Shown: positions 7,596 to 64,000 of the stretch, piece by piece
Numbering within the stretch: the first letter of the stretch is position 1
Layout: every line of letters starts with the position of its first letter
NCBI GenBank assembly: GCA_015178975.1
Contig: WHVD01000111.1
Span: forward strand, 65,001-129,000
DNA: 64,000 nucleotides
From: Hysterangium stoloniferum
Lineage: Eukaryota; Basidiomycota; Agaricomycetes; Hysterangiales; Hysterangiaceae
Direction: 5' to 3'
Position numbers and translations under genes: made by a program
Notes under the pieces: model-generated
Told to the model about the DNA's origin: nothing
The model's database searches: none
The model's input: only the letters and a program-made list of their open reading frames with translations

Positions 7596-9552
7596 TTACC
7601 CACCCTTATTGACAGCGCATCTCTCCCAAAAATGCAATAGAACACGAAATACGTTGTGAATCCACTGTCCCTCTTCCACACTCATCAGCCATGCAAAATA
7701 CCGATAACGTTCATCCCCATCTTCCTCAAACCCAATAGGCCCATCCACATCCTCTGGTGAAAATTCCGCCCATACTCCATCCTTCAGTTCCATACATTCA
7801 GCCGTGTATGTCAGCCAAAACATTGGAACAACCAAATCTTCATAACGGCAACTCCTCCTCGCCTGAACCTCTGGGTCTGGATCCCATTTGTGCATCTTCT
7901 GCCCCCACGACATCGGACACCCTAACCAAATACACAGTCCCCGAGGAAACCTAAAATCTTTCTTGATGTCAATTACCTTTCCACAGTAGTTCTTCATTGT
8001 GCATTTCGCTGCTGCGTGGTCCCGGATCAACTCATTCCCCATCAACAAATGAATCATACAGCACTTCCTCATCTTTTCCAGTTCTCCCTTCAACCGTGCC
8101 TCTTCATCCATTTTGAAATCACCAACGCCTTGAGTTTTAGCCCTTTGATTCGCAATTGAACCGCTAGACCAACCCATCCCGCTCACGATTGACCGTCCGC
8201 TTTTTATAGCACTCGACCTGCCTGAAGGCCCAGAGTAGCCCCGGCTCCGTTTCACAGCTCGACCACTACTTTCCAAATCTTCACATGGTCTCTTGTACCC
8301 ACCACTTAAACCACCCGATGACCTTCGACTGCCCAATGAGTCACAACGAACCAATCCAGGTGGTCCCATTGATCCATTAGATATTACCCGTGACTCCCAC
8401 CTGCCATCCCGACGGATCGCTCTAATACACATTCATCAGTACTTAGCAATTCTCAAAACAACCATTTTACATACTGCGGATCCACTCGACATCCTCCCAA
8501 AGCTCCTTTCCCCTGAGTCCCAGTCACCATTTCAGATCTCGATGCTTCAGATAATATCCTTTCTCTCCCATTCACATTACACCTTGAAATCATCGGTTCT
8601 GCAGTCATTGATCCAAATCTACTTCACATTTAATATAAAATCGTTTAATACATATAGAACACTGACCTTGAGACCCTCTCCGAGCCAGGTGAGTCAGTAT
8701 AAGTATACATAACTTCGCCATCTTTAGAAGTCCCACACCCGCTGAAACTCTCTTCAATAACATCCAAAAATCTGAAATAACCACGAGTACCTTGACAATC
8801 CTTCTGAACCAACCATCACATTCCCTCGCGAGCTATTATCTCGCCAATATTCACCCCGCTCGTCTTCCAAATCCCACCCATCACCCCTTCTAACAATCTG
8901 TCAGAATCTAAACTGAAACAACAAATCAGTTCACATACTCTACTATTCCCACATCTCCTTCCGGAACACTAGTAACTGTGAAGTCCCTGTTCGTACAAAG
9001 TCAAAAGTCTACCCAACAAGTACTCAGTGTTCCCACTTACTGCTTCGACTCCCGTCTCGCTACTTTCCTTGCCGCACAAAGATCACAAAATGATGCTAAT
9101 GAACTGCACGTCACTGGTCTCTCATCGTTGTACGCTGTTAATGGAGCCCATCGACACGTTCTTTCCTCCCAGACCGCCATTCTCAACACATTGATCCCCC
9201 GTATATCTTCAGCCTCCTTGACAAACCTAATACTCGGTTCCTCCGTCACATACAAATACGCCACACCCCGTGATCCATCTCTGTTAACCCGGCCTATGTT
9301 TTGAATTAGAGTCATCGCGTCGTACGGTGCCCCAACGTTCATCACCATGTTCAACTCTGCCAGGTAAATCCCAGTACCGCACCCAGTCGTTGCAACCATC
9401 ACTTTGTGCTCACCCGTGACCCAATTCTCGAACACCTTGTCTTTTTCCCGAGTAGTCAGCTCACCGTGGTAGTGCGGAACTGCCACTGCCCTCGCAAGAA
9501 TCTCCACACTTTGCTTCGAGGTTCCAATAACAAGGCAACGTGTTAGGGACAA
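7596..9552 (-). pseudogene. RecQ-like helicase, C-terminal half (copy 1, left piece)
   Basis: Minus-strand exon 9552-9037 encodes the second RecA-like domain of an SF2/RecQ helicase: LVIGTSKQSVEILARAV (motif IV), YHGELTTREKD, the VMVATTGCGTGI stretch (motif V) and MTLIQNIGRVNRDG (motif VI, Q..GR..R). It is followed by a Cys-containing tail (SFCDLCAARK). Plausible short introns lead to a 278-aa C-terminal exon (8432-7596) that is Ser/Arg/Gly-rich at first and then has Cys/Trp motifs. No first RecA domain is present upstream; instead the strand flips at about 9551. Full-length relatives with a zinc-finger N-terminus are the fungal telomere-linked helicases. Here the gene is a fragment. Confidence 0.75.
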
Positions 9553-11000
9553 GGGTATACAAGCAAGGGTTCATGCGCTGATGAAGTCACTCTTACTCTG
9601 CGAGTATCTGGCAGGGAAGCAGACCCATTTTGACTGTCCTCTAACCTCGTTCCTGGTTGTTTTCAACTGGAATTATACTGGATCGTTTAAGCAGCCGAAC
9701 GTGATTACGCAAAGTTTTGCAGCTATTCGTTTCATTGGGAGATGTACAGCTGGGTTTGAATGCATTATTGGAGAAGAGGACAATACGACGAGGACAGGAC
9801 TGTATGGGATACTAGATGCGATGAAGCCGAGATTGTTTGCAGGGAACCGGTCAGCAATGGGGAATCTGTATGGATTGTGGGGTATTATCGGAGCAGCTGC
9901 ATATGATCCTACAGTGATACCCTCATTTGCATTTACAGATCCCGAGAGGCGTCAGTTTATCTTTCGAAACATTTGTAGATGAGTGGATGCTCTGACAGAA
10001 ATGATTCGAGAATTGATGGACACTCTGAAGAGGGAGATCACGGAATTGGGTGCCTTTGCTGGATCTCCATCTTCTCTTCCTGATGTATTTCATGATGATA
10101 CAGCTAACATTAGTCCGGGTTATTCATTCATAATGGAGGAGAAGAACAAGTTTACGATAACTCGGGAGATGCTTATGGATCGGATTCTCAAGAGTGATAA
10201 TTCACAAGTGAGAAAGACATTTGGCGAGGCAGTGGATGGGCAGTCGGTGTGGAATCGGACGGGATGTGATGGATTCCTACAGAGGTGTCAAAAGATCTTG
10301 GAAGATTTGCTGGTGGTTGTTCATTTCACGCATGGGCAGCCAAGTCGTGGAGAAGAGTTGCTTTCGACTACAATCGTCAATATGCCAAACTCACCGAGAA
10401 CGATCGTGGCTTTTGACGGAATGATTATGACGGCAATACGGGCTGACAAGACGGCAGGTATCTCGGGGCGGGGTAAGGTGAAGCCACACTGGATGCCATT
10501 GGAACTTGGGCCGATGTTTGTTTGGTATCTTCTAGTATTGCGGCCTCTTCAGATTATGGTCGCAGAGGAATTCCTAGGGGAAGATATTGCATCACTTTAT
10601 CGTTGCTACTTGTGGACGGGACCTACAGGGAAATGGAGGACAGACTACTTCACACTGTTGATTCGACGATATACTTCAAAAGCTATGGGAACGGAGAATG
10701 CGATGACGTTGAGTAGCTCTCGGCAGGTGTTGTGCGGGCTTTTCTTTCACCATTGCAATGCAGAATTTTGGGAAAGTGATGTGAAGAGCGATGAGGAGCT
10801 GATGATTGAGAGGATTGGTGATATGCAGGCTGGGCATACATCTGCAATAGCGAGAAATCATTATGCGGTAGAATTGCCTCATTTTCAGGAGCTGAAGGAA
10901 AGAGTTTTTAGAGCGGTGTTTGTTGTAAGTATCTGTTTGTTAACGATTGCTATTATTTTGTTAATATTTGAATGACAGTACACTCTAGGTGTATTCTCCC
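9553..11000 (+). pseudogene. RecQ-like helicase, middle region (copy 1, inverted piece)
   Basis: This plus-strand block matches about 50200-48760 of the second helicase copy (minus strand). Frames 9581-9982 (133 aa) and 9983-10975 (330 aa), separated by one stop, encode conserved blocks such as HFTHGQPSRGEELLSTTIVN, RADKTAGISGRGKVKPHW, VLRPLQIMVAEE and MTLSSSRQVLCGLF. An intron (10925-10978, GTAAGT...GACAG) is conserved in position in the other copy. Homology stops near 11000, before the helicase motor domain. Its reading frame in the VLRPLQIMVAEE part is better kept than in the other copy. The piece is oriented head to head with the C-terminal half at 7596-9552. Confidence 0.8.
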
Positions 11001-12604: not shown

Positions 12605-13339
12605 AAATCCAAATAACTTGTGAAAATAATGGAACAGAAACTATATAAATAGTATATAAGAATTAATTCAAAAGGTATTATAATACTATACCATTAGAGA
12701 AATAAGAGAGATAGTTCCTAGACAAGAGGAATGGCTGAATAAATTTCAAAAAGTCTAATAAGCAGTGTAAGTGATCCAGTAAGCCAAGACTTCCAAAGTA
12801 TACATTCACAGGGATCCAAAGTGTCCACAGATGATGCTTCTTGACTGATATGATATTCCACCAGCAGAGAAGGAAAAGAGATGGCTATCTAAGAGAATGG
12901 ATAGTATCTTTCCAAAGCAAGAGATTCCCAAAACTCTTACAGAAGTGTAGAATAACTGGAAAGAAACAATGCTCTATAACACTGGATGAATAGAGAAGCT
13001 GATCAGAGTGTCACCAAAAGATATAGTGTGATTTGGCTCAAGAATTGGAGAGGTTGACTGTCGAGGCTCGAAAAGTTTTCAAACTCCGACATTGAATCTC
13101 ACTGTGGGGGTGCCGCGCACTGCTGTGAGGGGTGCCGCGAATATACATTTTGGCTTCAAACTAAAACATAGCTATATTTTGAATGGTGATACTCAAAAAA
13201 CCATTTTAAATGATATATGCTCTTCAAAAAAGGACTATTTACAATTTTAAACATCCAAACCCAGTCTTAAAGTAAATTAACAGGGCCCCAATGAACAGAT
13301 TGATATATTATGAAGGACATAGACAAAACTATGTCTATT
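12605..13339. other. No supported gene
   Basis: AT-rich, no long frame on either strand. It may contain the upstream exon(s) and promoter of the minus-strand gene that ends at 12604. Two GGGGGTGCCGCG / GGGGTGCCGCG words occur at about 13105-13139. Confidence 0.4.
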
Positions 13340-13440
13340 TTATGCTAGGTAAATGTGTCTTTGAAGGCATTTTGAGGTGTTCGCGGCAGTCGCGGCAGTC
13401 GCGACACCTGCGCGGCACTTTCCCATGGCCCTGGTCACGT
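13340..13440. repeat. 100-bp block shared with both arms of the inverted duplication
   Basis: From TTTTATGC to CTTTCCCATGGCCC this block matches 58317-58412 and, inverted, about 59460-59565. It contains an AGGTGT...ACACCT inverted pair around short GCGGCAGTC repeats. Here it lies just upstream of the FunK1 start codon. Confidence 0.75.
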
Positions 13441-13466: not shown

Positions 13467-15753
13467 ATGTCAGTGACCCCGCCTAGAGATTCACCTGCTA
13501 TCGAGGCCTTGACAACTGCCCTCCAAAGTACCCCTCTTAACCAAGGAGCGGGATCTCATGAATCCTATGACACCGAAACTCAGCGGATTCACTACTATGG
13601 GTATCTCGCTGATGATACGAAGCACACCGCCCAGATCGAATTCGATACATTCGTATGGCTTGTGTGGAGTGCCAAGCTTGACAATCTCGAAGCATCAGCG
13701 GAACGTATTTTCCGAGAAAAGAAGTTTCAACCTCTGTTGGAAAGCTATTGTGACGAAGTCTCGGAAGAAACAGACCGTTATCATCCTTTTGTACAGCTCG
13801 CCAACCACATTCTTGCTCTTGACAACCATTCCTCCCTGGCATTCGTTCGCAACGACCGCTCATGTCTTTGGGGTTCGTATGCACAGCGCAAGCCAGACGT
13901 TTTGTTCATTTTCCGTGAGGCATTGCGTTTGGGAGAACGCCATAATGAGGATAACTTGTCGAAGGCTGGGCCTAGCAAAGGAGACGAATTCCATTGGGGT
14001 GACCCTTTGGACTTTTGGGAGTTCAAACTCAAATTGAAAAAGTACCCTGGACCCCAAGAAGCATTGATGGCGGGTAAGTGTCTTTTGACCACGACAATTC
14101 CTTGGGTCACACTTTAATGCAGCCGCACCGAAACCGTTCAAAAAGCCGCTAACCAGCGAGAACCGCGTTAAAACTCAATCGCAAGAGGCACTCAGGCGTA
14201 GTTCCAGAAACGCGACAGCCTCAAAAACGAAGGAGAGTTCAGATAAGTTACTGAGCGCTCCAGTTACAAAAAAACGTTCTTCCCCCGGTAATACGGAACA
14301 AGTTGAAAAGAAATTTAGAACCGAGGAACCGCCGGAAGAACCATATCTTCAATCCGCCAGCTATGCACTGGAGATGTTTTCTCATGGGAACCTGCGTAAC
14401 CATGTCCTTGGTGCTGTGGTCACGGACTTTTCCATTGAAATTTTGTACTATGACCGTTCCGTGACAGTGAAGTCAACACCATTCTATTTTGTGGAGAACC
14501 CAAGGAGGTTTGTTGCACTCCTGGTAGCATATGCGGGGCTCAGCGACCGCCAACGCGGCCTGGAGACGAAAATCACTCCGAAGTTCCTAACGCCTGGCAT
14601 TAGGGGCAACCGAGAGGCAAGGCAACCTTTGATCGATTTTTTTGCTGGTCAAATCCTGGAAATCCCAGGATTCAAAATAAAGTTCAAACTGCAAGAGACG
14701 ATTTTCCGTCAACATGCCTTAATCGGCCGTGGTACCTGCGTTCTGCGAGCTGTACCGTCCAAGCCGTTACCCGGGCAAAATAATTTGGTTCATAAGGTTG
14801 TTATCGTCAAGTTGGGGTGGCTGAGTGTATCCAGGGCACCAGAAGCCAAAATCATTGACAGTGCCATTCGGGCTGCATCCACTTCGGCGCATCAATGGGT
14901 TAAGAAGCACCTGCCGGAAGTTTTACACTCTCATGTCTATCCTCCAGATAAAGATGGACCTCACGTTAAGCTGATTGAACATTTAAATGACCCGAAATAC
15001 GACAAGCGAGAGCTGAGACTGATCGTCCAGGGGGAACTTTTTCCTATCACGCGTTTAACCAAGGCAGAGGATGTAAAAAGGGTGTTTTTAGATATTCTTG
15101 AATGTGAGTTTTATTCTGTGGAATCGTTTGTATTGTCACTTGACATGGTTTTAGGCCATGAATGGCTTTATACCGAGGCAAAAATCCTCCACCGTGACAT
15201 CAGCCTCGGAAACCTGATGTATCGAACCGTGAACGGCCAACACTGCGGAGTTTTGAATGATTTTGACCTCGCCTCGTATGTAGTTCCAGGGCATATGGAG
15301 CCGACATCCAATCAACGGACTGGCACTAAACCATTCATGGCGATTGATTTACTTAGACAATCGCCCCCTCCCCGTCATTTATACCGTCATGATCTCGAGT
15401 CGTTTTTCTACGTCTTGCTCTTTTTCGTTTCTAGGTATCTCGATGGTGCCGAGATCGAGGACCCACCACTGCAGTTATGGCTGACTAAAGGAGATGATAG
15501 GTTGGGGGAGGCGAAAGGGTCTTTTCTTTTCTTTGGCGCAATTAATCCCACCGAAAACTTCGCCAAATTGAGGTTCCTACTTTTGGGGATGAAGAGTGTT
15601 CTTGCCGATGGTATCGATGCTCGCCGTAGACATGAGTTCCAAGCAGAGCTCACGAAGGCTCAAGGGCTCAATCCTCCGCTGTTTGATGATGAGACGTTAG
15701 GCGGCCACGTTTCTTTTGCAAAGTTCAAAGGTCTTTTCGCCCTCGCACCATGA
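13467..15753 (+). CDS. FunK1-type fungal protein kinase
   Basis: Three exons (13467-14073, 14123-15103, 15155-15753) give a 728-aa protein. Introns are 49 nt (GTAAGT...TGCAG) and 51 nt (GTGAGT...TTTTAG). The kinase half has a SYALEMFSHGN entry block, the catalytic loop ILHRDISLGNLMYR (HRD, with Asn for metal binding), an NDFDLASY segment in the DFG position, GTKPFMAIDLL in the activation/APE region and RHDLESFFYVL. These match the Agaricomycete FunK1 family, presumed Ser/Thr kinases of unsettled role. The middle linker (about residues 203-275) is basic and Ser/Lys-rich. The start at 13467 (MSVTPPRD) is preferred over 13377, which lies in a repeat block. No disabling change is visible, so it may be functional. 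Confidence 0.88.
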
Positions 15754-17171: not shown

Positions 17172-17417
17172 TATTGTAAAAGGTCACAACTTGTAGATGC
17201 AGTGCCACTCAGGAAACTCCTGAGTGCGAGTAGACTGACTCTGTTGTTTTACTACTGTACATTCTGTAGTTATTTTATACTACTGAGTCCTATTGTTCTA
17301 TGAGTGGCACAATGGAATCTAATAATAGGTTCGATCAGTAGTTGTTCCCTTTGTTGTTTCAAGTCGCTATTGTTCTTCTGGGATAATTCAACTGGTATTG
17401 TCCCTTTTATTACAACA
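17172..17417 (-). repeat. 3' LTR of the copia element (246 bp)
   Basis: On the minus strand it begins TGTTGTAATAAAAGGG and ends CCTTTTACAATA. It matches the right LTR almost base for base. The minus-strand purine run GAGGGGGAG beside it is the likely polypurine tract. Confidence 0.92.
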
Positions 17418-20400
17418 CTCCCCCTCAGTTGAATTATCATTTAATCCTAACCGTATTGTTAGAATGTTATGTTGTTCTCGTGGTAAGGACTTTGTGAAGA
17501 TATCGGCTAAATTGTCCTTGGTGTTTACTTCGTTTACACTGATCGTTCCATCAGTGATCCTTTCACGGATGTAATGATATTTGATATCAATATGTTTTGT
17601 TCTCTTGTGATAAACATTGTTTGAGGCAATTGATCGAGCTCCAAGTGAATCACTGAAAAGGTTAATAGGAAGGTCGATTTCAAAGAAGAGTTGTTGAAGC
17701 AAAGATATGATCCATTGTGCATGTTTGGAGCATTCTGTGAGGGCCATGTATTCTGCTTCGGTTGAAGATAATGCAACAGTTTGTTGTCTTTGTGTGGCCC
17801 ATGCTATTGCTCCCCCTGAGAGAATGAAAGTATATCCTGTTGTTGATCGGCAATTGTCCTTGTCTCCCGCCCAATCTGAATCGCTGTATCCAATCAGTTC
17901 TGTGGAATTATTCCTTCCGTAAGTCAATTTCCATTGTTGTGTTGTTGCAAGATACCGTAGGGTATGCTGAGCGGCATTTAAGTGAGCGGATGTGGGATTG
18001 GAACCGTATTGTGAGAGTCGATTGACTGCATAGCATATATCCAGCCTTGTTCCCAGCATGGCATACATGAGTGATCCGACGAGTTGTTGACAGCTTGTCC
18101 TAACTGTGTGATCTGAGTTGGGTTCTGTATTTGCTATTAGAGTAGTCCCTGCAGGGAAGGGGGTGTATGCAGGGCGACAGTTCTTCATATTAAAACGATC
18201 AATTATTCGTTGAATATAATGAGTTTGATCTATTGTTATGGTCTTCTTAGAGCAATTGCGAGTGATGTGGAGTCCTAGAAAGTATTCGATTTCCCCTAAA
18301 TCGGTGTATTTGTACTTGGAACCAATAAAGCTTTTGACATCTTGTATGTTTTTCAAGGTCCTGAAGATTGCCATGTCGTCTACATATACTAGGATTATTG
18401 TGAATTGTCCCCCTTCTTCGTGATCTTTGAAAAAGATTGAGACATCACCAGAGATCAATTTAATGCAGCCCATGCTTGCCAGGGTGTTCTGTAAATGTTC
18501 ATGCCATTGCCGCCCCACTTGTTTCAGACCATAGATAGCTTTCATCAGTCGGCAGACCAAATGCTCCTTCCCGGGGATCGTGAACCCTTGTGGTTGATCC
18601 ATGTAGATTTCCTCATTCAGATTTCCATTTAGGTAAGCAGATTTGATGTCAATTTGATGTATGTCCCAGTTATATACTGCCACCAATGATAACAAAAGTC
18701 GCAGGGAGTCTAAGCGGGCGACCAGGGCAAATTTTTCTTCATAGTCGACTCCTTCCATTTGTGTGAATCTCTTTGCAACAAGTCGTGCTTTGTATCGTGC
18801 GATTTCACCCTGTGTGTTCTGTTTTGTCGTGAAAACCCACTTATTTCGCACAGTGGTACGGCCCTGTGGCAACTCAACCAGTTCCCAAGTTCTATTTTCT
18901 GCTAGGGATGCAATTTCATCCTCCATCACTTGCTTCCATAGGTATGCTTCAGGGGTCTGCATGGCATAATTGTAGGTAGTGGGATCACCAGTTGGAGTAA
19001 TACTTGCAGCGGCTATGAATGCTTCAGAGGAATTGTTCCATATACATGGAATCTGGGGGCGCAGCCCTCCTTGTATGCGCTCTTGATCAGGATGCACATT
19101 CATGGGATCATTCCTTCGTATTCCACGGGTTGACCAGATGGATCTGCAAAGTGGAGGTAAGTCTTCTGTCGTGAGCTCAGGAGAAGGTGTATGTGGTTGT
19201 GGTGGTATGGATGTATACTCAGTTGCAGATGGAGAAACATGTTCCTCATCATCGCTGTCAGGCAAGATGAGGTCTACAAGTTCAGTGCTTTGTGGTGTAT
19301 CCAGGTTGGTTGGTTGAGACATGGAGGGGTGGAGGGGAAAAAGACTTTCATCAAAGATAACATCTGTGGAAGTGAGGAGTTTTTGTGTCTTGGGATCCCA
19401 CAGTTGATATCCCTTTGTAGTAGGCTCGTATCCTGTGAAAATAAGTTTCTCGGAGGTGGCTTCAAGCTTGGTTCTAGGCGTCGTGATATGCCTATATGCA
19501 AGGCATCCAAAAACTCGAAGGTATGAGAGATCAGGGGCCTCTCCAAAGAGTCGTTCATGTGGGGAAAGGTAGTCATTTGCTCGTGAAGGTGCTCTATTTC
19601 TGACATGTGTAGCAGTAGCTATGGCACATTCCCAGAAGGTGTTTGGCATCCCAGCTGACTTCAACATTGCCCTTGCGGCACCTGCAATAGTTCGGTTTGC
19701 TCTCTCAGCTACCCCATTCTGCTGGGGGGTGTATGGTGCAGTGAGCTCATGTTTTATACCTTTCTCATCTGTGAATGTTTTGAAGTCCTTAGATAAGAAT
19801 TCCCCACCACGGTCAGAGCGAATGGCTTTTATCTCTGCTTGGAATTGAGTTAAGATATACACAGCAAAATACTTAAATTTTTGTATTGCTTGATCCTTAG
19901 TTTGTAGAAAGAAAATCCATTTGAAGCGTGTATAGTCATCTATAATAATAAAATGATAGAAGCTTCCCTGTATTGACCGAGTTTGCATTGGTCCTGCAAG
20001 ATCCATGTGGACTAGTTCAAAGGGGTTTGTTCTCCTTGTATGTGTAGTCTTAAAGGTCCTTCTCGTGGATTTTCCAAGTAAGCAGCCTTCGCATGTAGAG
20101 AGCCTGTGTGGAGAAGTGGAATCTATGTGATCACTGAGCTTCTGAAGAGTTGTCCAGGAGAGGTGTCCCAACCGGGCATGGAGAGTCTCAATCGGGATTT
20201 TCTTCTGGATTGAGTGAACTGTAGGCTTCGAGGAACGGAGTGTGATCCAGTATTGTTGTCCAATTAAAATCCCTTTTGCGCATGGAGCAGAATTCTTGCT
20301 GAGAGTAACAGTGTTTGTGAAAAAGGTGGTAGAGACCCTCTTTTCTCCTAGTTTCCGTATTGAAATGAACCTCCCATTAATGTTGGGCGAGTGTAGGACA

Positions 20401-20705
20401 TTTGTTAATGTAATTTGTTTTTCAATCCCTTCGATTTGTGTAGTGGCTGCAACTGTGCCAATTCCAATGTAGGAGATTCGTGTGGTCCCATCTGCCAGGC
20501 GAATGTTTTCTGGTCTTGGCAGAGCTCGGTATTCTGAGAAGTCCGAGATTTCGTGAGTGATGTGATCTGAGCATCCTGAATCTAACATCCATTTGGTTTC
20601 ACGCGCAATGTAAAAGATAATGGCCTCGTTTGAGATTGACTTAACCATTACATTGGTACTGCTAGGAGGTGGGGTATATGCTACCTCTTGTATTGATGCG
20701 CTCAC
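17388..20705 (-). CDS. Copia pol polyprotein (fossil element part)
   Basis: This 1105-aa frame carries, in order, an aspartic protease block (WMLDSGCSDHIT, about residue 35), the GAG-pre-integrase motif (HARLGHLSWTTLQKL), an integrase zinc region and catalytic core (HMDLAGPMQT, SDRGGEFLS, YTPQQNGVAERANR), reverse transcriptase (NKWVFTTKQN, DIKSAYLNGNLNEEIYM, the LVYVDDMAIF active site) and RNase H (GYSDSDWAGDKDN, STEAEYMAL, FTKSLPREQH). This order, integrase before RT, defines Ty1/copia. In such elements the protein is matured by its own protease inside virus-like particles. Confidence 0.95.
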   Translation of the reverse strand: MSASIQEVAYTPPPSSTNVMVKSISNEAIIFYIARETKWMLDSGCSDHITHEISDFSEYRALPRPENIRLADGTTRISYIGIGTVAATTQIEGIEKQITLTNVLHSPNINGRFISIRKLGEKRVSTTFFTNTVTLSKNSAPCAKGILIGQQYWITLRSSKPTVHSIQKKIPIETLHARLGHLSWTTLQKLSDHIDSTSPHRLSTCEGCLLGKSTRRTFKTTHTRRTNPFELVHMDLAGPMQTRSIQGSFYHFIIIDDYTRFKWIFFLQTKDQAIQKFKYFAVYILTQFQAEIKAIRSDRGGEFLSKDFKTFTDEKGIKHELTAPYTPQQNGVAERANRTIAGAARAMLKSAGMPNTFWECAIATATHVRNRAPSRANDYLSPHERLFGEAPDLSYLRVFGCLAYRHITTPRTKLEATSEKLIFTGYEPTTKGYQLWDPKTQKLLTSTDVIFDESLFPLHPSMSQPTNLDTPQSTELVDLILPDSDDEEHVSPSATEYTSIPPQPHTPSPELTTEDLPPLCRSIWSTRGIRRNDPMNVHPDQERIQGGLRPQIPCIWNNSSEAFIAAASITPTGDPTTYNYAMQTPEAYLWKQVMEDEIASLAENRTWELVELPQGRTTVRNKWVFTTKQNTQGEIARYKARLVAKRFTQMEGVDYEEKFALVARLDSLRLLLSLVAVYNWDIHQIDIKSAYLNGNLNEEIYMDQPQGFTIPGKEHLVCRLMKAIYGLKQVGRQWHEHLQNTLASMGCIKLISGDVSIFFKDHEEGGQFTIILVYVDDMAIFRTLKNIQDVKSFIGSKYKYTDLGEIEYFLGLHITRNCSKKTITIDQTHYIQRIIDRFNMKNCRPAYTPFPAGTTLIANTEPNSDHTVRTSCQQLVGSLMYAMLGTRLDICYAVNRLSQYGSNPTSAHLNAAQHTLRYLATTQQWKLTYGRNNSTELIGYSDSDWAGDKDNCRSTTGYTFILSGGAIAWATQRQQTVALSSTEAEYMALTECSKHAQWIISLLQQLFFEIDLPINLFSDSLGARSIASNNVYHKRTKHIDIKYHYIRERITDGTISVNEVNTKDNLADIFTKSLPREQHNILTIRLGLNDNSTEGECCNKRDNTS

Positions 20706-20744
20706 AGTTGGTGTATCTTTCTCTTTCCCATCCTTCCCTACTTT

Positions 20745-21638
20745 TCATTGCTTTCTCTCGCTCTGTGCCTCCTCCTTTGAAAGGCCACGCTGTTTGCATT
20801 GGCAGTCTCTCTCCCAATGCCCTGGGGCGCCGCAGAAGTTACATGTATTGTTAGTCTTCCTTTTCCCTTGTTTCATGGCATTAACTGAAGTTGTTCCTTG
20901 TCGTAGTTCTTCAGATAGAATGTGGGCACGCATATTCGCAGAAGTGAGTGTCTTGTAGTCACTCACGTTCGCTAGAATAGTTTGCTGGATTATTTCATAT
21001 GTGGGGGGCAGGGCACGAAGGATAAGGAGTGCATGGAGGCTATCCGCAATGGGCATTCCAGCTGTTTCGATACAGGAGCGGTATTCAGACATCTCGTCTA
21101 TCTGTTGCGTGAATGGGAGATCAGTTGTAATAGATGTATTGAAGTATTTGGTGATGTCGACCCAAAGATTGAGTCCTGTGCGAGTGCCGTAAGTTTCTTG
21201 TAGTCTTTTCCAGTTGTCTGCAAGGCTCTCATCATCTTTGATAGATTGCCTGATCATTGGCTTGATTGCGAGTTGTATCAAACCTAGTCCTTCGTCGTTT
21301 CGACTGTCCCATTTGTTAATGGCCTGTGTTTCTTCACTCGTAGGGGTCTCAGGTGTTTTTGGTGTTGGGTGAGTCTCATTTCCCTCAGCAATGCGTAATA
21401 TGTGTGTGAGGCGAAATGCACTTCGTACAGAATATGACCAATCTTCCCAATTCGTTCCATTGAATTTTTCAATTGAAGTTAGAAGTCTGGAAGCTGTTGA
21501 TGACATGTTCTGATTTTCGCAAGATGGGTGTGTGTGTGCTGTAGGTATTGTCAGGTAGGAATAGTATTTTATAAGTGCGTTAGGCAGCGGGGCCCATAAC
21601 CTATTGTAAAAGGTCACAACTTGTAGACGCAGTGCCAC
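20745..21638 (-). CDS. Copia gag (fossil element part)
   Basis: A 297-aa frame beginning inside the 5' LTR side. It has a typical copia gag (UBN2-like) pattern with FNGTNWEDWSYSVRSAF, a W..L...Y block (NWKRLQETYG) and a C-terminal CCHC zinc knuckle, CNFCGAPGHWERDC. The likely start is the Met at about residue 45 (MSSTASRLLTS), since the first part overlaps the LTR and primer-binding site. Gag forms the particle shell. Confidence 0.9.
   Translation of the reverse strand: MALRLQVVTFYNRLWAPLPNALIKYYSYLTIPTAHTHPSCENQNMSSTASRLLTSIEKFNGTNWEDWSYSVRSAFRLTHILRIAEGNETHPTPKTPETPTSEETQAINKWDSRNDEGLGLIQLAIKPMIRQSIKDDESLADNWKRLQETYGTRTGLNLWVDITKYFNTSITTDLPFTQQIDEMSEYRSCIETAGMPIADSLHALLILRALPPTYEIIQQTILANVSDYKTLTSANMRAHILSEELRQGTTSVNAMKQGKRKTNNTCNFCGAPGHWERDCQCKQRGLSKEEAQSERKQ
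21589..21601 (-). other. Primer-binding site of the copia element
   Basis: Minus-strand GGTTATGGGCCCC starts directly after the 5' LTR end (CAATA). It equals the half-tRNA primer site known from Drosophila copia, where a cleaved initiator tRNA-Met primes reverse transcription. Confidence 0.8.
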
Positions 21639-54584: not shown

Positions 54585-54908
54585 TAGTGGACCGACCGTT
54601 ATGTAGCAGTTGAAGTTGGTGGGCTCAGCTGGAGAACGAGATAGGTAATATGCACAAGAATGTCAGAAGAGGCTCGTTAAGTGACGAAGCAAAAGAGAAC
54701 AAGTAAGGTGGCTGATGTAGACGAAGACATGAAACGCATTGTTTACTCGGTGTCATCATTCACCTGTATCGAGGATGTCCAAAACCTATCAGAAGGAACG
54801 GATAGGGTATTATTATTATGAGTTTGTTCCCAGAGTATTAAAGGATTGCCAGATGCCTTTACAAGCCTGGGAAGCACGAAAAAAGGAATTTGACACTATA
54901 CCTAGTCA
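54585..54908. other. No supported gene
   Basis: A short plus frame (54739-54990) runs into the copia LTR end. No domain seen. Confidence 0.35.
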
Positions 54909-54968
54909 CTTAACAAAAGCGAGTAGAACCACCCGGCTAGCTGGGTTTAATAACGCAACCAAAACCAC
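54909..54968 (+). mobile_element. Copia LTR end fragment at the left edge of the inverted duplication
   Basis: The sequence AGTAGAACCACCCGGCTAG and the following 35 bp match, inverted, the left end of the LTR at 62313-62753. The last few bases of the LTR are missing. It is followed by TATGGTCTAACTCC, a reduced version of the primer-binding-like sequence beside the other LTR. Only about 55 bp remain. Confidence 0.65.
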
Positions 54969-55234
54969 ATATGGTCTAACTCCTATCTAACTCAAAAGGA
55001 GATTGATCGTTCTGGGAGACTCCTAACCGGCGATCTTTATCCTTGCAACGATCTCCTAGTCAACCATCAACCAAAACACTTCTTCATATGACCACAAGAG
55101 GGACAACCCTTGAAGGCGAGAGGAGGCAACAGGTTGTAGCTGAAGGTAGGTGGGACATTTTCAAGTGTGGATGGCATTGTAAATAGTTTTCGTTCGCTCA
55201 ATTCCCGCTCACAGACAAAGAGACGAACGCTACG

Positions 55235-57770
55235 ATGGCCGCCGCAATTAAAGGCTTTGAAAACTACATTAAATACTTGGCCACTGGGAAATTGGATGGA
55301 TATCTCGACTCGACCCGACGTGAAGACAAACTTACAGACCTCGAGGTGAAGCTACCCCTTAACCCAATTCTTCTCCTTCATGATCTCGGCAACCACCCAG
55401 ACAAGGATCGGATTGAAAAATTGTTCGTCCGTAACACAGTGTTCGTAGCGTTTAGACAATTTTACAGACAATAAATCCTAATCTTCCTCTTTCCAGCCAT
55501 CTATTTGGCGTCTCTGGTTCGGGTAAAACACGTCTTGCACTTGAGGGTCTTTGCTTGAATTGGGGCCTTTATATTTCGTGCATACGCACACGAGGTTCAG
55601 CATCTGGCTCCAAGGACTTTGAGGTAGCGACGGAAGAAATGTTGCCAACTTTAGGCACTTTGCCATCTTTAAGCCCTTGGTATGGAGATACAGACCGTGT
55701 CTCTGCAATGTTGTTGTGTGCACGCATCTTCATCCTGAAGCAATTTTTGCAACACATTCCTGTTAACACAGATGCCACATTAGCTCGGCGGCGATGGGTT
55801 CTTGCTCAAGTTTTGCCACCCCGTTTGGACTTTTGGGGTGACGATCTCTTCGTCAGAGTGCTCCGGACCCTCCAGCGTGCCGACATGCAGATCATGCGTG
55901 ACATTATCGCCTCCACCCTAAGTGAGCTCAAAACTAAGAGGAAAGATTTGTTTCCAGATGGACGCGACACATCTCTATTTGTCGTGATCGACGAGGTACA
56001 GGTGGCTGCCGACAATCTGAAGGCGTACTCCAACACAGGGACTGATATGCACCCCATTCTTCGTAAAATGTATAGATTCTTTCGTGACACTAGATTCTTC
56101 ACTGGGTTTATTCTCTCAGGAACTGGTCTGTCGATGAACATGGTGGATGATGTCGGTACTGCTTCTGCAAAATATGGTTTGGGGGTCTTCACTGATATTG
56201 GGCGTTTCACGAAAGATGGTTCTTCTCAATTGGACTATATTTGCCGGCACCTCACTCTTTCTGACAATGACTCAGATCGACAATTGTTGGAACGCATGGT
56301 GTACTGGTTTTCTGGCCGGTATGTCTATCATTTGACGCTATGAGATTCCCTTTTATCATTTATATTGTAGCCACCGCCTGACAGCTAGCCTTATTGAGCT
56401 GTTTATCTGCTTGGAAAACGTCCCACGCCACCGTGTTCTCACCTCGTTTGTTGAACACTTGACTGGATTTAAAATCACTGACGCAATCGAACTGGAGGGT
56501 GGTGAACCCCCTATTTCCCCTGAGCTGTCCGTGTTGATCTCAAATCATCAACCAATTAATGAATTGGACCGCATTTTCAACGAAAAGAATAGTCAGTGTA
56601 ATATCTCTTTTACTAATGCAAGGACCAACTGCATATTTAATAGGAGAGGAATTGATACAATGCCTAGTTGAAATTCTTAGGCAATGGACTTTGGGGAGTG
56701 AACCTACAGCCATCACCAACAAAAACCATATGCATGACATGATTGCGTGGGGCCTAGGTGTTTTGGACAAGACGATGAACCCTTGGAAATTCAAGGCTTA
56801 TAAGAACTATCCTGTATCCATTTCTGAACCATTGGTAATTCTCTCCCTCAGATCGTTTTTCCAAAAGTACAGTCACACGATGATGGAGACATGGATGGCC
56901 AGTGCATTTCACAGTGCTCATAACGCCTCGTCACTTGGATATATATTTGAAGAGGCGATCCTTCTCATGCTCATGGATACTTTTGGGGGGGAGTACAAAC
57001 CCCTCTCACATGCCTTCCACTGTAGCGAGTCATTAGGGTCGAGGAAGGTTACCTTAGTCACGCTGAAGCGTGGGGCTGATGACACAATGCAATGCTACCC
57101 AGTATCATGGAAGACAGGCAATTCTGATCGCTTGGGTCTCAAGGCTAGTTCCCCTGAAAACATTCTCGCTTTCTTGCACAATCCAGATGGAAAGCCTTTT
57201 CTTCTTCCAAACACTCACATGGGCCCTGATGTGTTGTGTACCCTTCAAGACAAGGAGACGAAGGAGCTGATTATTCTTGCAGTTCAAGCAAAAGTTTTGC
57301 CAACCCTCAATTCTCAGAAATGGCGAGATGCCATCATTTCTGTTACACCCAAATTCTTTTACACGCTGGAGGTAGGTATCAAACCTTGTAAACTCTATTG
57401 CACTCAACCTATATTCTGATGTTTATAGAAGGGAGGGAAACCAGATCGATATGCACAAGTGCCCTACCCAAATCTCATAGATGATCTGACAGCGAGTTTG
57501 GAGATGGTTCTCGGGCCAGCAGTATACACGCCAATAGCTGACATTTATCGCAGTAAACTCCACAGTAGCATCCAAGCTCAGCAGCAATCTGTTTCACACT
57601 CAACGCGACAGACCCCCAGATTCCTTCGCATCATTGCAACCCCTGACAATGAACAGCAGAAAAATCTGAAAGGGGAATGGAAGGGTGATGTAGCTGTTTT
57701 GCGGTGGGATGTTGGAACATTATATGAGTTCAATGGGCGAATTACTGAAGGCCATAGTGCTCCATTCTAG
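55235..57770 (+). CDS. Crinkler-RHS-like P-loop NTPase with C-terminal PD-(D/E)XK-like region
   Basis: Five exons (55235-55440, 55497-56318, 56371-56591, 56623-57371, 57429-57770) give 779 aa. The introns are 56, 52, 31 and 57 nt and all join in phase. Walker A is GVSGSGKT (residues 73-80) and Walker B is LFVVIDEVQ (229-237), followed by a sensor-like ILSGTG. Near the C-terminus a FEEAILLML helix, GPDVLCTL (D619) and IILAVQAKV (Q638-A-K640) fit the E...D...(E/Q)xK pattern of a PD-(D/E)XK nuclease fold. NTPase plus nuclease is the core of Crinkler-RHS-type proteins, which are proposed nuclear-acting effectors or conflict proteins in eukaryotes. The Met at 55235 is the first in a frame that leads cleanly into exon 2. 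The family call is by motif only; the 31-nt intron is unusually short. Confidence 0.65.
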
Positions 57771-58103
57771 TCAAAGTAACTCACAAAAGAAAGTTAAAAC
57801 TACGCAGTGAATGTCAACCTTTTTGATCAAAGTGACTTGGAACGTTTAGATAAGAGTTTCCTTGTTGCTTAATTTGTGTTGTTCCCTTGTTATCCTATAG
57901 AAGTGTATGTTATTTCGATTACCGAATACATGTGCAAGTAACTCTATTGATATGAGGATATACTTTTAAGAGACAAATCACCGCCAATATACTCACATGA
58001 TGCATGAAAAGTGAACACACATGTGGGAATCAGTTATGTATTATTAGGGTTTCCCTGTTTTTTTTTTCTACTTTGGACTTGGGTTATTATATATAGTAGT
58101 TTT
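57771..58103. other. 3' flank of the NTPase-nuclease gene
   Basis: AT-rich, non-coding, and conserved in the other arm (59590-59886), including a GGGAAACCCTAATAATACATAACTGAT-type stretch in reverse. Probably the 3' UTR and terminator region. Confidence 0.55.
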
Positions 58104-58315
58104 TGTTGGAAATCAAGACCCTAATAGTGTATAATGGACTAAAGTACAGTCAAATACTATACTATCTACTGCTTATATATCTTTGGCAGAACAATGAAAG
58201 GGTGAGAACAATAAGCAGTGGAACAAAGAAAGGGGTAAGTGACACAACTCCTTTGTTGTCCCAAAAATAGATTTGATCTTCGGAATATGTTGTTCATGAT
58301 GTACACATTCCAACA
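58104..58315. mobile_element. Solo LTR, 212 bp, TSD GTTTT, only in the left arm
   Basis: Begins TGTTGGAAATC and ends CACATTCCAACA, with perfect 8-bp inverted ends (TGTTGGAA/TTCCAACA), flanked by GTTTT at 58099-58103 and 58316-58320. The right arm has the uninterrupted site (reverse complement reads AGTAATTTTATGCC). Small copia-type LTR, non-coding. Confidence 0.92.
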
Positions 58316-58513
58316 GTTTTATGCCAGTTAAATGTGCATTTGAGGGCATTTTGAGGTGTTCACAGCAGTCGTGACACCTGCGTGTCACTTTCCCGTGGCC
58401 CACCGAGAAGTATGGCCTGCATTATTTTGGGAAACTTAAATCTGACATACTTTAGCATAAAAACATCAAAATACTTAAATTATGGTTTGGCGATGCTGCC
58501 TTCAAGTATCTGA

Positions 58514-59364
58514 ACTCTCAACTCCTCACAATTTAGAGAAAATCACAGCCTTCAAAGGCAAGGAGTTCAAGTCTGCCAGTGCAGAATAGTTAAACTTGTA
58601 TATACATTTGACACTTGATTGGATGTTTTGCGTGTTCAATATCCTACAATTGTGAGGAGCCAGTGTGTGATTTAGCCTCTTTTGATCATGTGGAGAACAG
58701 AGGGAGTTTATATTTGCTGAGCAGTTGGAACAAAGAAGAGTTTAACTCAATTGTGGACCATCTAACAGATTCCATATCATTTTGTAATTCCATCAAATTC
58801 AGGGATGTGAATGGGATTTTAAATTGATTGATTTCACACATGTTCTATGTGATGTTAAATCCTGCAACCACATCCAGGAGTTTTGTGGATTTTTAATTGG
58901 ATCATCCTCTGACAAGTCACAGGAAAGATAAAGGGATACAGAATCCCACTGCACTATACAAAATTGAAGGAGTTTATATTATTGATGCTTAAAGATCCTA
59001 TGTACACCTGATCACCCTCAACCTACCTTTTGGATCCTTAACCAATTTTAAATCTTATAAGGATCCAATAAAGATTATCGGAGTTTATACAAAATAAGGC
59101 TCTACTGCGGATCCTAAAATCTTTTGGAGAGAGGAGGTTTTCCCAGTGCACATTCCAACAGTACTGTCCTGGCATTTTTAGACCTCCAGCCTGCAGTGAT
59201 GGCCAAAAATGACAAGATATAACCGTTGGGTGTATAACAGACTACAACAAGATGTTTATCTCTGTATTATTGTCAAGCATATACATAAGAACTCACCGGT
59301 TTCTGGGATTCTATATGCTGGTCTATATGCCTCGAATCAGTCATATCACAAAGCATAACGTCGG
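58514..59364. other. Central spacer of the inverted duplication
   Basis: About 850 bp unique to the centre. A short plus frame (58615-58827) shows no domain. GTGCACATTCCAACA at about 59148-59162 resembles the end of the small LTR at 58315, so part of the spacer may be a decayed copy of that family. Confidence 0.5.
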
Positions 59365-59886
59365 ATACTTGAAGTGCAACATCGCCAAACCATAATTTAA
59401 GTAGTTCGATGTTTTGACACTAAAGTATGTCAGATTTAAGTTTCCCAAAATAATGCGGCCCATACTTCTCGGTGGGCCATGGGAAAGTGACATGCAGGTG
59501 TTGTGACTGCCGTGAACACCTCAAAATGCCCTCAAATATGTATTTAAATGGCATAAAATTACTATATATAATAGCTCAAGTCCAAAGTAGAAAAAAAAAA
59601 CAGGGAAACCCTAATAATACATAACTGATCCCACATGTGTGTTCACTTTTTATGCATCATGTGAGTATATTGGCAGTGACTTGTCTCTTCCAAGTATATC
59701 CTTATATCAATGGAGTTACTTGCACATGTATTTGGTAATCGAAACAACATATACTTGTATAGGATAACAAGGGAACAACACAAATTAAGCAACAAGGAAA
59801 CTCTTATCTAAAGGTTCAAAATCACTTTGATCAAAAAAGTTGACATTCACTGCGTAGTTTTAACTTTCTTTTGTGAGTTACTTTGA

Positions 59887-62041
59887 CTAGAATGGAGCAC
59901 TATGGCCTTCAGTATTTCGCCCATTGAACTCATATAATGTTCCAACATCCCACTGCAAAACAGCTACATCACCCTTCCATTCCCCTTTCAAAAATTTCTG
60001 CTGTTCATTGTCAGGGGTTGCAATGATGCGAAGGAATCTGGGGGTCTGTCGCATTGAGTGTGAAGCAGATTGCTGCTGAGCTTGGATGCTACTGTGGAGT
60101 TTACTGCGATAAATGTCAGCTATTGGCGTGTATACTGCTGGCCCGAGAACCATCTCCAAACTCGCTGTCAGATCATCTACAAGATTTGGGTAGGGCACTT
60201 GTGCATATCGATCTGGTTTCCCTCCCTTCTATAAACATCAGAGTATAAAATGAGTGCAATAGGGCTTACAAGGTTTGATACCTACCTCCAGCGTGCAAAA
60301 TAATTTGGGTGTAACAGAAATGATGGCATCTCATCATTTCTCAGCATTGAAGGTTGGTGAAACTTTTGCTTGAACTGCAAGAATAATCAGCTCCTTCGTC
60401 TCCTTGTCTTGAAGGGTACACAATATGTCGGGCCCATGTGAATGTCTGGAAGAAGAAAGGGCTTTCCATCTGGATTATGCAAGAAAGCGAGAATGTTTTC
60501 AGGGGAACTAGCCTTGAGACCCAAGTGATCAGAATTGCCTGTCTTCCATGATACTGGGTAGCATTGCATTGTGTCATCAGCCCCACGCTTCAGCGTGATT
60601 AAGGTAACCTTCCTCGACCCTAATGACTCGCTACAGTGGAAGGCATGTGAGAGGGGTTTGTACTCCCCCCCCAAAAGTATCCATGAGCATGAGAAGGATC
60701 GCCTCTTCAAATATATATCCAAGTGACGAGGCGTTATGAGCACTGTGAAATGCACTGGCCATCCATGTCTCCATCATCGTGTGACTGTACTTTTGGAAAA
60801 ACGATCTGAGGGAGAGAATTACCAATGGTTCAGAAATGGATACAGGATAGTTCTTATAAGTCTTGAATTTCCAAGGGTTCATCGTCTTGTCCAAAACACC
60901 TAGGCCCCACGCAATCATGTCATGCATATGGTTTTTGTTGGTGATGGCTGTAGGTTCACTCCCCAAAGTCCATTGCCTAAGAATTTCAACTAGGCATTGT
61001 ATCAATTCCTCTCCTATTAAATATGCAGTTGGTCCTTGCATTAGTAAAAGAGATATTACACTGACTATTCTTTTCGTTGAAAATGCGGTCCAATTCATTA
61101 ATTGGTTGATGATTTGAGATCAACACAGACAGCTCAGGGGAAATGGGGGTTTCACCATCCTCAAGTTCGATTGCGTCAGTGATTTTAAATCCAGTCAAGT
61201 GTTCAACAAACAAGAATGGGGTGCATATCAGTCCCTGTGTTGGTGTACTCCTTCAGATGGTCGACAGCCACCTGTACCTCATCGATCACGACAAATAGAG
61301 ATGTGTCACGTCCATCTGGAAACAAATCTTTCCTCTTAGTTTTGAGCTCACTTAGGGTGGAGGCGATAATGTCACGCATGATCTGCATGTCAGCAGGCTG
61401 GAGGGCCCGGAGCACTCTGATGAAGAGATTGTCACCCCAAAAGTCCAAATGGGGTGGCAAAACCTGAGCAAGAACCCATCGCCGCCAAGCTAACGTGGCA
61501 TCCGTGTTAACAGGAATGTGTTGCACAAATTGCTTCAGGATGAAGATGCGTGAACACAACAACATTGCAGAGACACGGTCTGTAGCTACATCACAAGGGC
61601 TTAAAGATGGCAAAGTGCCTACAGTTGGCAACATTTCTTCTGTCACTACCTCAAAGCCCTTGGAGCCAGATGTTGAACCTCATGTGCTTATGCATGAAAT
61701 ATAAAGGCCCCAATTCAAGCAAAGACCCTCAAGTGCAAGGTGTGTTTTACCCGAACCAGAGATGCCAAATAGATGGCTGGAAAGAGGAAGATTAGGATTT
61801 ATTGTCTGTAAAATTGTCTAAATGTTACAAACACTGTGTTACGGATGAACAATCTTTCAATCCGATCCTTGTCTGGGTGGTTGCCGAGATCATGAAGGAG
61901 AAGACTTGGGTTAAGGGGCAGCTTTACCTCGAGGTCTGTAAGTTTGTCTTCACATCGGGTCGAGTCAAGATATCCATCCAATTTCCCAGTGGCCAAGTAT
62001 TTAATGTAGTTTTCAAAGCCTTTAATTGCGGCGGCCATCAT
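59887..62041 (-). pseudogene. Broken second copy of the NTPase-nuclease gene
   Basis: The minus strand carries the same gene as 55235-57770, with the same start region, Walker A (GISGSGKT), Walker B (LFVVIDEVQ) and last exon (PYPNLVDDLTASLEMV). Most exons are about 95 percent like the left copy. It is shorter than the intact copy and broken in several places, so it is treated here as a fossil and the breaks are not detailed. It shows that the pair has been free to decay on one side. Confidence 0.8.
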
Positions 62042-62289
62042 AGCGTTCGTCTCTTTGTCTGTGAGCGGGAATTGAGCGAACGAAAACTATTTACAATGCC
62101 ATCCACACTTGAAAATGTCCCACCTACCTTCAGCTACAACCTGTTGCCTCCTCTCGTCTTCAAGGGATGTCCCTCTTGTGGTCATGTGAAGAAGTGTTTT
62201 GGTTGATGATTGACTAGGAGATTGTTGCAAGGAGAAAGATGGCCGGTTAGGAGTCTCCCAGAACGATCAATCTCCTTTTTAGTTAGATA

Positions 62290-62310
62290 GGAGTCAAAGC
62301 TCTAACACCA
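62290..62310 (-). other. tRNA primer-binding-like sequence beside a copia LTR
   Basis: On the minus strand, two bases after the LTR end (CAACA), the sequence TGGTGTTAGAGCTTTGACTC begins with the TGG needed to pair with a tRNA CCA end. It resembles the copia sites of the TGGTATCAGAGC type. It faces the NTPase-nuclease gene rather than the copia pol. Confidence 0.55.
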
Positions 62311-62312
62311 TA

Positions 62313-62753
62313 TGTTGTAAGTGGTTTTCGTTACATTATTAAACCCAGCCAGGTGGTTCTGCTTAAAAGACTGTAACAAGACAGTTACACTCAGTCGTGC
62401 ACAGATAGTATGCAAATGTCTGATTAATTACCTGTAACGAGACAGTTACACTGTGTTGCATAAGTACAAGTAGTTAAGCAAGAAACCATTAACTCACCTC
62501 AGTCGTGCGCAGATAGTATGCACACATCTGAGGTGATGTGTACCTAGCTCCAAGACTAAATACGAAATGTAGTCTTTTCATGTACAAATAAGTAAATCAA
62601 TAATCATGTTGTTGAAAATGTTATATGAAACAAGGTTAGTGTGATGAGACATTAAACAAAAAGGAGTCGGACAAAAATATATAACAATTGTGTCATTTCA
62701 GGACAATCGGAAACAAAGGGTTGATAGACTGTGTTGCACTTGAATTTCCAACA
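62313..62753 (-). mobile_element. Copia LTR, 441 bp
   Basis: On the plus strand it runs from TGTTGTAAGTGG to AATTTCCAACA (TGTTG...CAACA ends). The run of G (minus strand, 62754-62760) next to it is the polypurine tract of the copia element to the right, making it that element's 3' LTR. The other side carries a primer-binding-like sequence. It contains paired TCAGTCGTGC.CAGATAGTATGCA repeats (about 62391 and 62500). Confidence 0.85.
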
Positions 62754-64000
62754 CCCCCCCTCAAGGTGAACACAGTCCTAGTTCAGCAGCACAATGTTTG
62801 ACCTTTGGTGAGGGCAATGCTTTGGTTAGGGTGTCAGCAACCATGCCGGCTGTGGGGCAATAGATAAGGCGTAGTTTACCATTTTCGATGACCCAACAAA
62901 TGAAGTGAAAACCAGATGTCAATGTGTTTCGTGTGAGCGTGATATTGATGATCTTTTGCAAGTGCAATAGCAGATTGGTTATCAGAAAAGAGAGTCGGTG
63001 GACCAGAGATAGGTGTGAAAAGTTGCCCAATAAGAGTACGGAGCCATAATGCCTCTTTTGCAGCATGTGTTGCAGCAACATACTCACTCTCTGTTGTTGA
63101 AAGTGAAACAACTCCTTGACACTTTGAAGACCATGATACGGCTCCACCATCAATGAGGAAGGCATATCCTGATATCGCTCGTCGATCTTCACCCATACTT
63201 CCATCCACATCTGCAAAACCAGTCAGCACTTTCTCAGCTCCCCCATATGTCAATTTCAGATGCTTTGAGCCTAACAGATAACGATAGATGCGTGGAACAG
63301 CATCCCAGTGTGTTGGTCCAGGGTTGCTTGAAAATCGTGATACGGTGGTTACAGCATAAGAGATGTCAGGATGTGTGCCAAGAGAGGCATACATCAGTGA
63401 GCCTACCACTTCACAATAAGGGACATGACACATTATTGCATACTCTTCACCAGTTGAGGGGGCTTGCCCAGAATGGAGGTGAACATTCAGCTCCATTGGA
63501 GTGGATACAGGCTTAAGTTCTGTGAAACCAAAATGACGTAGAATAGAGTCAATGTAGGATGCTTGGGATAGGGAGATAGTATGTGTGTCTCGATTTCTTG
63601 TGACCTCAATGCCTAGAAACCAATGGAGTTCACCCAAATCAGTAATCTCAACGTACTTGCTAATTTGCGACTTGAGGGAAATAACATGATCAAGGGATTT
63701 TGCAGCTATAGTGCAATCGTCCACATGTACCACCACAATTGTGTGTTCGCCTGAGTCTCCACATCAAAAGAATATGGCTTAGTCAACATTGCACTGTACA
63801 AAGTTTAGTTTGTCGACTAGAGTTTCGACTAGCCCTGATACCAACGTCTCCCACTTTGTTTTAGACCATACAGTGTTTTATGTAATCAACAGACCTTTTT
63901 GGGGTGTTTGGACGATTTGAAGCCTGGTGGTTGATGCATGTAGAGGACCTCATCTTCAGTGAGGGTACCATTCAGGTAAGCACCTTTGATGTTGATCTGA
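62754..64000 (-). mobile_element. Ty1/copia element, 3' half (RT and RNase H), cut by the window end
   Basis: Minus-strand frames 63736-62876 and 63216-62761 carry the RT end (VVHVDDCTIAAKS, LGELHWFLGIEVTRN, SYAVTTVSRFSSNPG) and RNase H (GFADVDGSMGEDRRAISGY, VVSLSTTESEYVAATHAAK, TKHIDIWF, ADTLTKALPSPKVKH). Further RT sequence (LYMHQPPGFKSS-like) runs to the window edge. The visible part has a few breaks. The 5' part lies outside the window, so completeness cannot be judged. Confidence 0.9.

What the first reader, a model, noticed from the sequence alone, without database searches (positions are those of the whole stretch)
54925..62370. Large inverted duplication carrying two NTPase-nuclease genes tail to tail
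Two arms of about 3.6 and 3.0 kb face each other around an 850-bp spacer. Each carries the same multi-exon gene with its 5' leader and 3' flank. One copy is intact, the other broken. Tail-to-tail transcripts over such arms would share long complementary 3' regions, which in fungi could feed RNA silencing. This is direct from the sequence; the silencing idea is inference.
Basis: partly seen in the sequence, partly recalled or inferred. Interest (0 to 1): 0.85.

Follow-up and report, generated by a model that had tools for sequence, protein, structure and literature searches.

The report
Decaying mirror-image duplicate of fungal gene
A fungal chromosome carries a mirror-image double copy of one gene from a roughly thirty-copy, Crinkler-like family, one copy still readable and the other broken and split by a jumping gene; it looks like ordinary gene-family turnover, although it could in principle make double-stranded RNA.

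Summary
The inverted duplication is real. By blastn the arms in the window are 54922-58513 (+) and 62363-59361 (-), around an 847-bp spacer. They are larger than reported: a ~5.3-kb copia retrotransposon splits arm B and runs off the window; beyond it homology resumes, so arm A spans 54602-58513. The arms differ by 4.9% (K2P) and carry private insertions and deletions, unlike a 99.97% palindrome in the same assembly, so an artefact is unlikely. The gene is one of about 30 dispersed copies. Copy A has a six-exon, 801-aa open model with Walker motifs and a D...QxK motif; copy B has a stop, a lost splice donor, a 381-bp deletion and 1-nt indels. A copy on contig C201 shares A's left flank beyond the point where B stops, so B is probably the derived arm; clustered shared sites suggest gene conversion between arms. 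The silencing idea contains a slip: the two mRNAs have the same sense; only read-through across the spacer gives a hairpin. RNAi genes exist, but CpG decay is not raised in A, which speaks against silencing of A. Best reading: ordinary family turnover; an siRNA locus is possible but untested.

The parts
54602..58513 (+). Arm A of the inverted duplication, full extent (3,912 bp, including a 213-bp insertion private to A)
   Evidence: blastn against window arm B and contig sequence beyond the window
59361..62363 (-). Arm B, inner part; the outer ~0.3 kb lies beyond the window at C15:132633-132929, behind a copia element
58514..59360 (.). Spacer (847 bp); 58646-59148 is a high-copy genomic repeat, in several places found as a close head-to-head inverted pair
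   Evidence: (40 of 575 candidates scored)
55088..57770 (+). Copy A gene: exons 55088-55145, 55215-55449, 55497-56318, 56371-56591, 56644-57371, 57429-57770; 801 aa; GVSGSGKT at residue 102, VVIDE at 260, GPDVL at 639, VQAK at 659
   Evidence: spliced open frame, all five introns GT..AG; motif positions; key residues invariant in 5 of 5 aligned copies
59887..62185 (-). Copy B, pseudogene of the same gene: stop in exon 3, lost intron-2 donor, ~381-bp deletion, 1-nt indels in exon 5
   Evidence: alignment of 19 family rows; ends read from the sequence
58104..58316 (.). 213-bp insertion in arm A with TGTTGGAA...TTCCAACA ends, flanked by GTTTT on both sides; absent from arm B (solo-LTR-like or MITE-like)
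   Evidence: nine genomic matches at 88-93%; flanks and the uninterrupted site in B; copy on C441
62364..64000 (-). Part of a ~5.3-kb copia LTR element inserted in arm B; LTR 62364-62754; the element continues past the window
   Evidence: RVT_2 match, LTR pair of 391 bp at 96.7%, uninterrupted site in A and C201
53862..54601 (.). Left flank of arm A, shared with paralog C201:613207-617328 but not with arm B
54872..54896 (.). 25 bp present in A, absent from B and from C201
   Evidence: alignment breaks

Best explanation
An inverted segmental duplication within a dispersed, recombining gene family that codes for a Crinkler-like NTPase with a possible nuclease domain, in a fungus-like genome. A segment of ~3.9 kb (54602-58513) was copied in inverted orientation next to itself. 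The arms then exchanged sequence in places by gene conversion. Copy B decayed (stop, deletion, CpG-type changes) and its outer end was split by a copia element; arm A took a 213-bp insertion in its 3' flank. Copy A probably still encodes a protein; B is a pseudogene that needs no function of its own. Shown: arms, insertions with uninterrupted sites in the other arm, lesions, family size, clustering of shared sites. Inferred: conversion as the cause of the clustering, B as the derived arm, expression of A, biochemical role.
For: Arms and boundaries. 30 of 46 matches to 55000-56500 in the own genome are 1 kb or longer, counting A, B and both C88 arms (40 of 45 candidates scored). C201 shares A's outer flank to 53862, B does not. 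A-C201 K2P 3.3%, A-B 4.9%, yet 52 of 131 informative sites group A with B, in clusters: 48 runs against 63.7 expected in 10,000 shuffles, p = 0.0019. B lesions. Coding changes private to one copy, polarised by the other copies: A 11, B 33 with 2 stops, C201 15 with 1 stop. CpG-type C-to-T among private changes over the whole alignment: A 1 of 23, B 13 of 48, C201 11 of 70 (A against B Fisher p = 0.027, chosen after looking).
Against: Selection on the family looks weak: dN/dS between A and open copies is 0.58-0.69, and two broken copies give the same range (A-L023 0.63, A-L026 0.62), so constraint does not show that A is functional. A's first exon and last ~17 residues differ from relatives. 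Over the whole alignment C201, not B, has the most private changes (70 against 48). A-C201 being closer than A-B overall leaves the order of the two duplications unsettled. No read data to prove the assembly.
Confidence: 0.8

Rival explanations
1. The locus is a natural long-hairpin siRNA source: read-through from A, or read-out from the copia LTR through B, crosses the spacer and gives an RNA that folds on itself; Dicer cuts it and the small RNAs act on the whole gene family.
For: 2,161 of 3,912 arm-A positions and 1,612 of 2,406 coding positions lie in perfect A/B matches of 21 nt or more; 17 of 17 fetched loci of 7.8-10 kb that hold another copy share 63 to 862 of these 21-mers, and the two C554 loci share 6 each. 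Piwi, RdRP and Dicer-dimer families are present. The copia element lies upstream of B on the same strand. Precedent: 21-nt small RNAs from Crinkler genes in Phytophthora (PMC3804510, PMC3522703, passages seen); the soybean CHS inverted-repeat locus (PMC3804491, abstract in the search listing).
Against: The mRNAs as such are same-sense. No transcript or small-RNA data. A keeps CpG (o/e 0.656, against 0.475 in B and a median of 0.504 for 3-kb stretches of the window) and has 1 of 23 CpG-type private changes, not expected if a hairpin drove methylation of both arms. An unrelated 3.9-kb stretch of the window also shared 21-mers with 3 of 25 loci (53, 49 and 141). PMC3804510 concludes that the Crinkler small RNAs likely depend on RdRP.
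Confidence: 0.12
2. Assembly artefact: a palindromic or chimeric read joined two copies tail to tail.
For: The same assembly holds such a case: C88 has inverted copies at 99.97% over at least 7.4 kb, starting at the contig end.
Against: Arms here differ by 4.9% with private insertions, each with an uninterrupted site in the other arm, and a spacer without internal inverted repeat in the self-blast.
Confidence: 0.04
3. Two independent insertions of a mobile gene unit that happened to land in opposite orientation.
For: The family is dispersed over many contigs.
Against: Both arms share leader and 3' flank out to 54602 and 58513, outside the stretch that most other copies share with the window (about 55130 to 58000). 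The 58317-58513 block was found full length only in the two arms (40 of 164 candidates scored). No target duplication at the arm ends was seen by eye.
Confidence: 0.06

Closest known systems
Crinkler / CR (Crinkler-RHS) proteins with NTPase + REase architecture
   Same: P-loop NTPase region followed by a D...QxK nuclease-like motif; multi-copy family with many broken copies (Crinkler architecture as reviewed in PMC5289972, passages seen; many pseudogenes in P. infestans)
   Different: No LxLFLAK motif seen in the 801-aa model (by eye); no profile match; organism and secretion unknown
Soybean I locus (CHS inverted repeat, siRNA source; PMC3804491, abstract in search listing only)
   Same: Inverted copies of a gene-family member that could match other members in trans
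   Different: There siRNAs and target effects are reported; here neither RNA nor effect is known
Phytophthora Crinkler-derived 21-nt small RNAs (PMC3804510, PMC3522703, passages seen)
   Same: A gene family of the same general kind yields small RNAs, also from pseudogenes
   Different: Oomycetes; the authors think these siRNAs likely depend on RdRP, though they name intramolecular pairing as one possibility

Membership tests
Crinkler / CR NTPase-REase proteins | P-loop NTPase with Walker A and B | tested here: met
   GVSGSGK and VVIDE invariant in 5 of 5 aligned copies; motif names are recalled. Profile support is weak: AAA_16 in 3 of 5 members, best E 0.008; 15.1 bits against a cut-off of 32.6 for the exon-3 frame; none for the full A protein
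Crinkler / CR NTPase-REase proteins | C-terminal REase (PD-(D/E)XK) nuclease | tested here: inconclusive
   D641, Q660 and K662 invariant in 5 of 5, but no Pfam, NCBIfam or PDB sequence support and the exon-5 model had mean pLDDT 34.9; the reading as PD-(D/E)XK is recalled, not matched
Crinkler / CR NTPase-REase proteins | N-terminal header with LxLFLAK (oomycete type) | tested here: not met
   No such motif in the 801-aa model, by eye; CR proteins elsewhere are said to have other, unrelated N-termini
Crinkler / CR NTPase-REase proteins | Secretion or transfer into a host | not tested
   No prediction run; organism unnamed
Long-hairpin siRNA locus | Inverted arms able to form long dsRNA | tested here: met
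Long-hairpin siRNA locus | RNAi genes in the genome | tested here: met
   Piwi, RdRP and Dicer-dimer matches over cut-off
Long-hairpin siRNA locus | Transcript across the spacer and small RNAs from the arms | not testable with these tools
   no RNA data
Long-hairpin siRNA locus | Silencing marks on the open copy (CpG decay as a proxy) | tested here: not met
   A 1 of 23 CpG-type private changes, B 13 of 48, C201 11 of 70; CpG o/e A 0.656, B 0.475, window 3-kb median 0.504

The most novel reading that the evidence does not exclude
The broken arm has become a regulator: an LTR-driven or read-through RNA across the spacer folds into a kilobase hairpin whose small RNAs damp a ~30-copy Crinkler-like family in a fungus, and gene conversion keeps parts of the stem matched.
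Probability: 0.1. Interest if true: 0.7.

Novelty: new member of a known kind. Interest (0 to 1): 0.3.

Why it matters
If ordinary, it is a clear example, with relative dates for its steps, of how a large Crinkler-like family spreads, converts and dies by local inverted duplication and transposon insertion. If the arms make small RNAs, it would be a natural long-hairpin locus in a fungus; a re-analysis of fungal hairpin RNAs says that whether long-hairpin RNAi occurs naturally in organisms still needs exploring (PMC9757828, passages seen).

Tried and rejected
Rejected: artefact (arms 4.9% apart, private insertions); complementary mRNAs (same sense); a frameshift in A near 56591-56644 (it fits a 52-nt GT..AG intron). 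Led nowhere: Pfam, NCBIfam and PDB sequence searches for the protein; AlphaFold2 on two single exons (mean pLDDT 34.9 and 40.7), so no fold search was run. The organism could not be named; short introns, copia elements and a Pkinase_fungal match suggest a fungus, and 'mushroom-forming' would be recall only. Literature searches; none of the titles listed there (1 to 15 per search, of up to 896 papers found) describes this locus. A second tail-to-tail pair of the family at C554 (arms 99.4%, ~13 kb apart) was not followed further.

Full report
Observation. A self-comparison of the window finds a large inverted duplication at the stated place: arm A 54922-58513 and arm B 62363-59361, 89-96% identical by block, spacer 847 bp. 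B lacks ~381 bp that A has (56062-56442), and A has 213 bp that B lacks (58104-58316).

The arms are longer than reported. The window is C15:65001-129000 of a 111-Mb, 554-contig genome. The 10 kb beyond the window show that a copia element (LTRs of 391 bp, 96.7% identical) sits inside arm B. Behind it the match to arm A resumes and runs to A 54602. Arm A and the C201 paralog carry the site without the element, so the element came after the duplication. The 213-bp insertion likewise has an uninterrupted site in B.

Probably not an artefact. The arms differ by K2P 4.9% over 2,985 sites. In contrast, C88 in the same assembly has an inverted repeat at 99.97% over at least 7.4 kb.

The gene. Copy A has six exons, five GT..AG introns and an 801-aa frame. 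GVSGSGK, VVIDE and the residues D641, Q660, K662 are invariant in 5 of 5 aligned copies. Database support is absent or weak, so 'NTPase' rests on clear motifs and 'nuclease' is provisional. The comparison with Crinkler proteins is by architecture and recall, with PMC5289972 (passages); Zhang et al. 2016, the main source, is not held.

The family. 30 of 46 matches to the 5' half are at least 1 kb. Of 19 aligned rows (two of them the two arms of C88), 8 have no internal stop over exons 2-6 when A's exon limits are used; 6 of these 8 also have GT at the four donors listed, the two C88 rows dropping out. dN/dS is 0.42-1.02 over the 17 pairs computed, so constraint is weak and does not separate open from broken copies.

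History. C201 shares A's left flank to 53862; B stops at 54602. Over 54923-58046, 79 sites group A with C201 and 52 group A with B, in clusters (48 runs, 63.7 expected, p = 0.0019), with A/B-identical runs of 265 and 188 bp between 56531 and 56983. Gene conversion between the arms explains this best. In coding columns B carries more private changes (33) than A (11) or C201 (15); over the whole alignment C201 has most (70; B 48, A 23).

Silencing. Tail-to-tail inverted copies give same-sense mRNAs; a hairpin needs read-through. If made, it would have long perfect stems: 2,161 of 3,912 positions lie in matches of 21 nt or more, and 17 of 17 fetched loci of 7.8-10 kb with another copy share such 21-mers. 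As a control, an unrelated 3.9-kb stretch of the window shared 21-mers with 3 of 25 loci (L016 53, L021 49, L027 141), presumably through repeats; for L027 that is more than its 87 with the arms. RNAi genes are present; there are two DNA methylase matches. CpG-type changes are few in A (1 of 23) and more frequent in B (13 of 48) and C201 (11 of 70). B's CpG o/e of 0.475 is near the window's 3-kb median of 0.504, and A's 0.656 is above it. Two Fisher tests were made after looking at the data (p = 0.027 and 0.041), so they are weak.

Verdict. A real, decaying inverted duplicate in a large gene family; silencing remains an open possibility that is cheap to test.

Noticed in passing
G000 C554:201287-204565 and 217545-220958 (L029, L030): A second tail-to-tail inverted pair of the same family, 99.4% identical over 2.9 kb with ~13 kb between.
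   Followed up: partly
G000 C88:1-7364 and 74500-81863 (L020, L019): A 99.97% inverted repeat beginning at the contig end, which looks like an assembly palindrome; the second arm may extend beyond the stretch fetched.
   Followed up: partly
window 58646-59148: High-copy repeat in the spacer; elsewhere (e.g. C10, L031) it forms close head-to-head inverted pairs, like a foldback element.
   Followed up: partly
window 9533-10992 and 50211-48753: Another inverted repeat pair, 1.46 kb at 94.4%, about 38 kb apart; each overlaps a long open frame without a Pfam match at E 0.001.
   Followed up: no
window 17388-21638 (-): Copia element with gag and pol domains in two long open frames.
   Followed up: no
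window 14089-15753 (+): Fungal-type protein kinase (Pkinase_fungal, E 5e-49).
   Followed up: no
window 58317-58401: An ~85-bp stretch at the inner arm end recurs at 83-89% in many places of the genome and once more in the window near 13338-13431.
   Followed up: no
window 55088-55145: Copy A's first exon and upstream leader differ from those of most other aligned copies, while L015 shows a similar stretch; the leader may have been exchanged.
   Followed up: no
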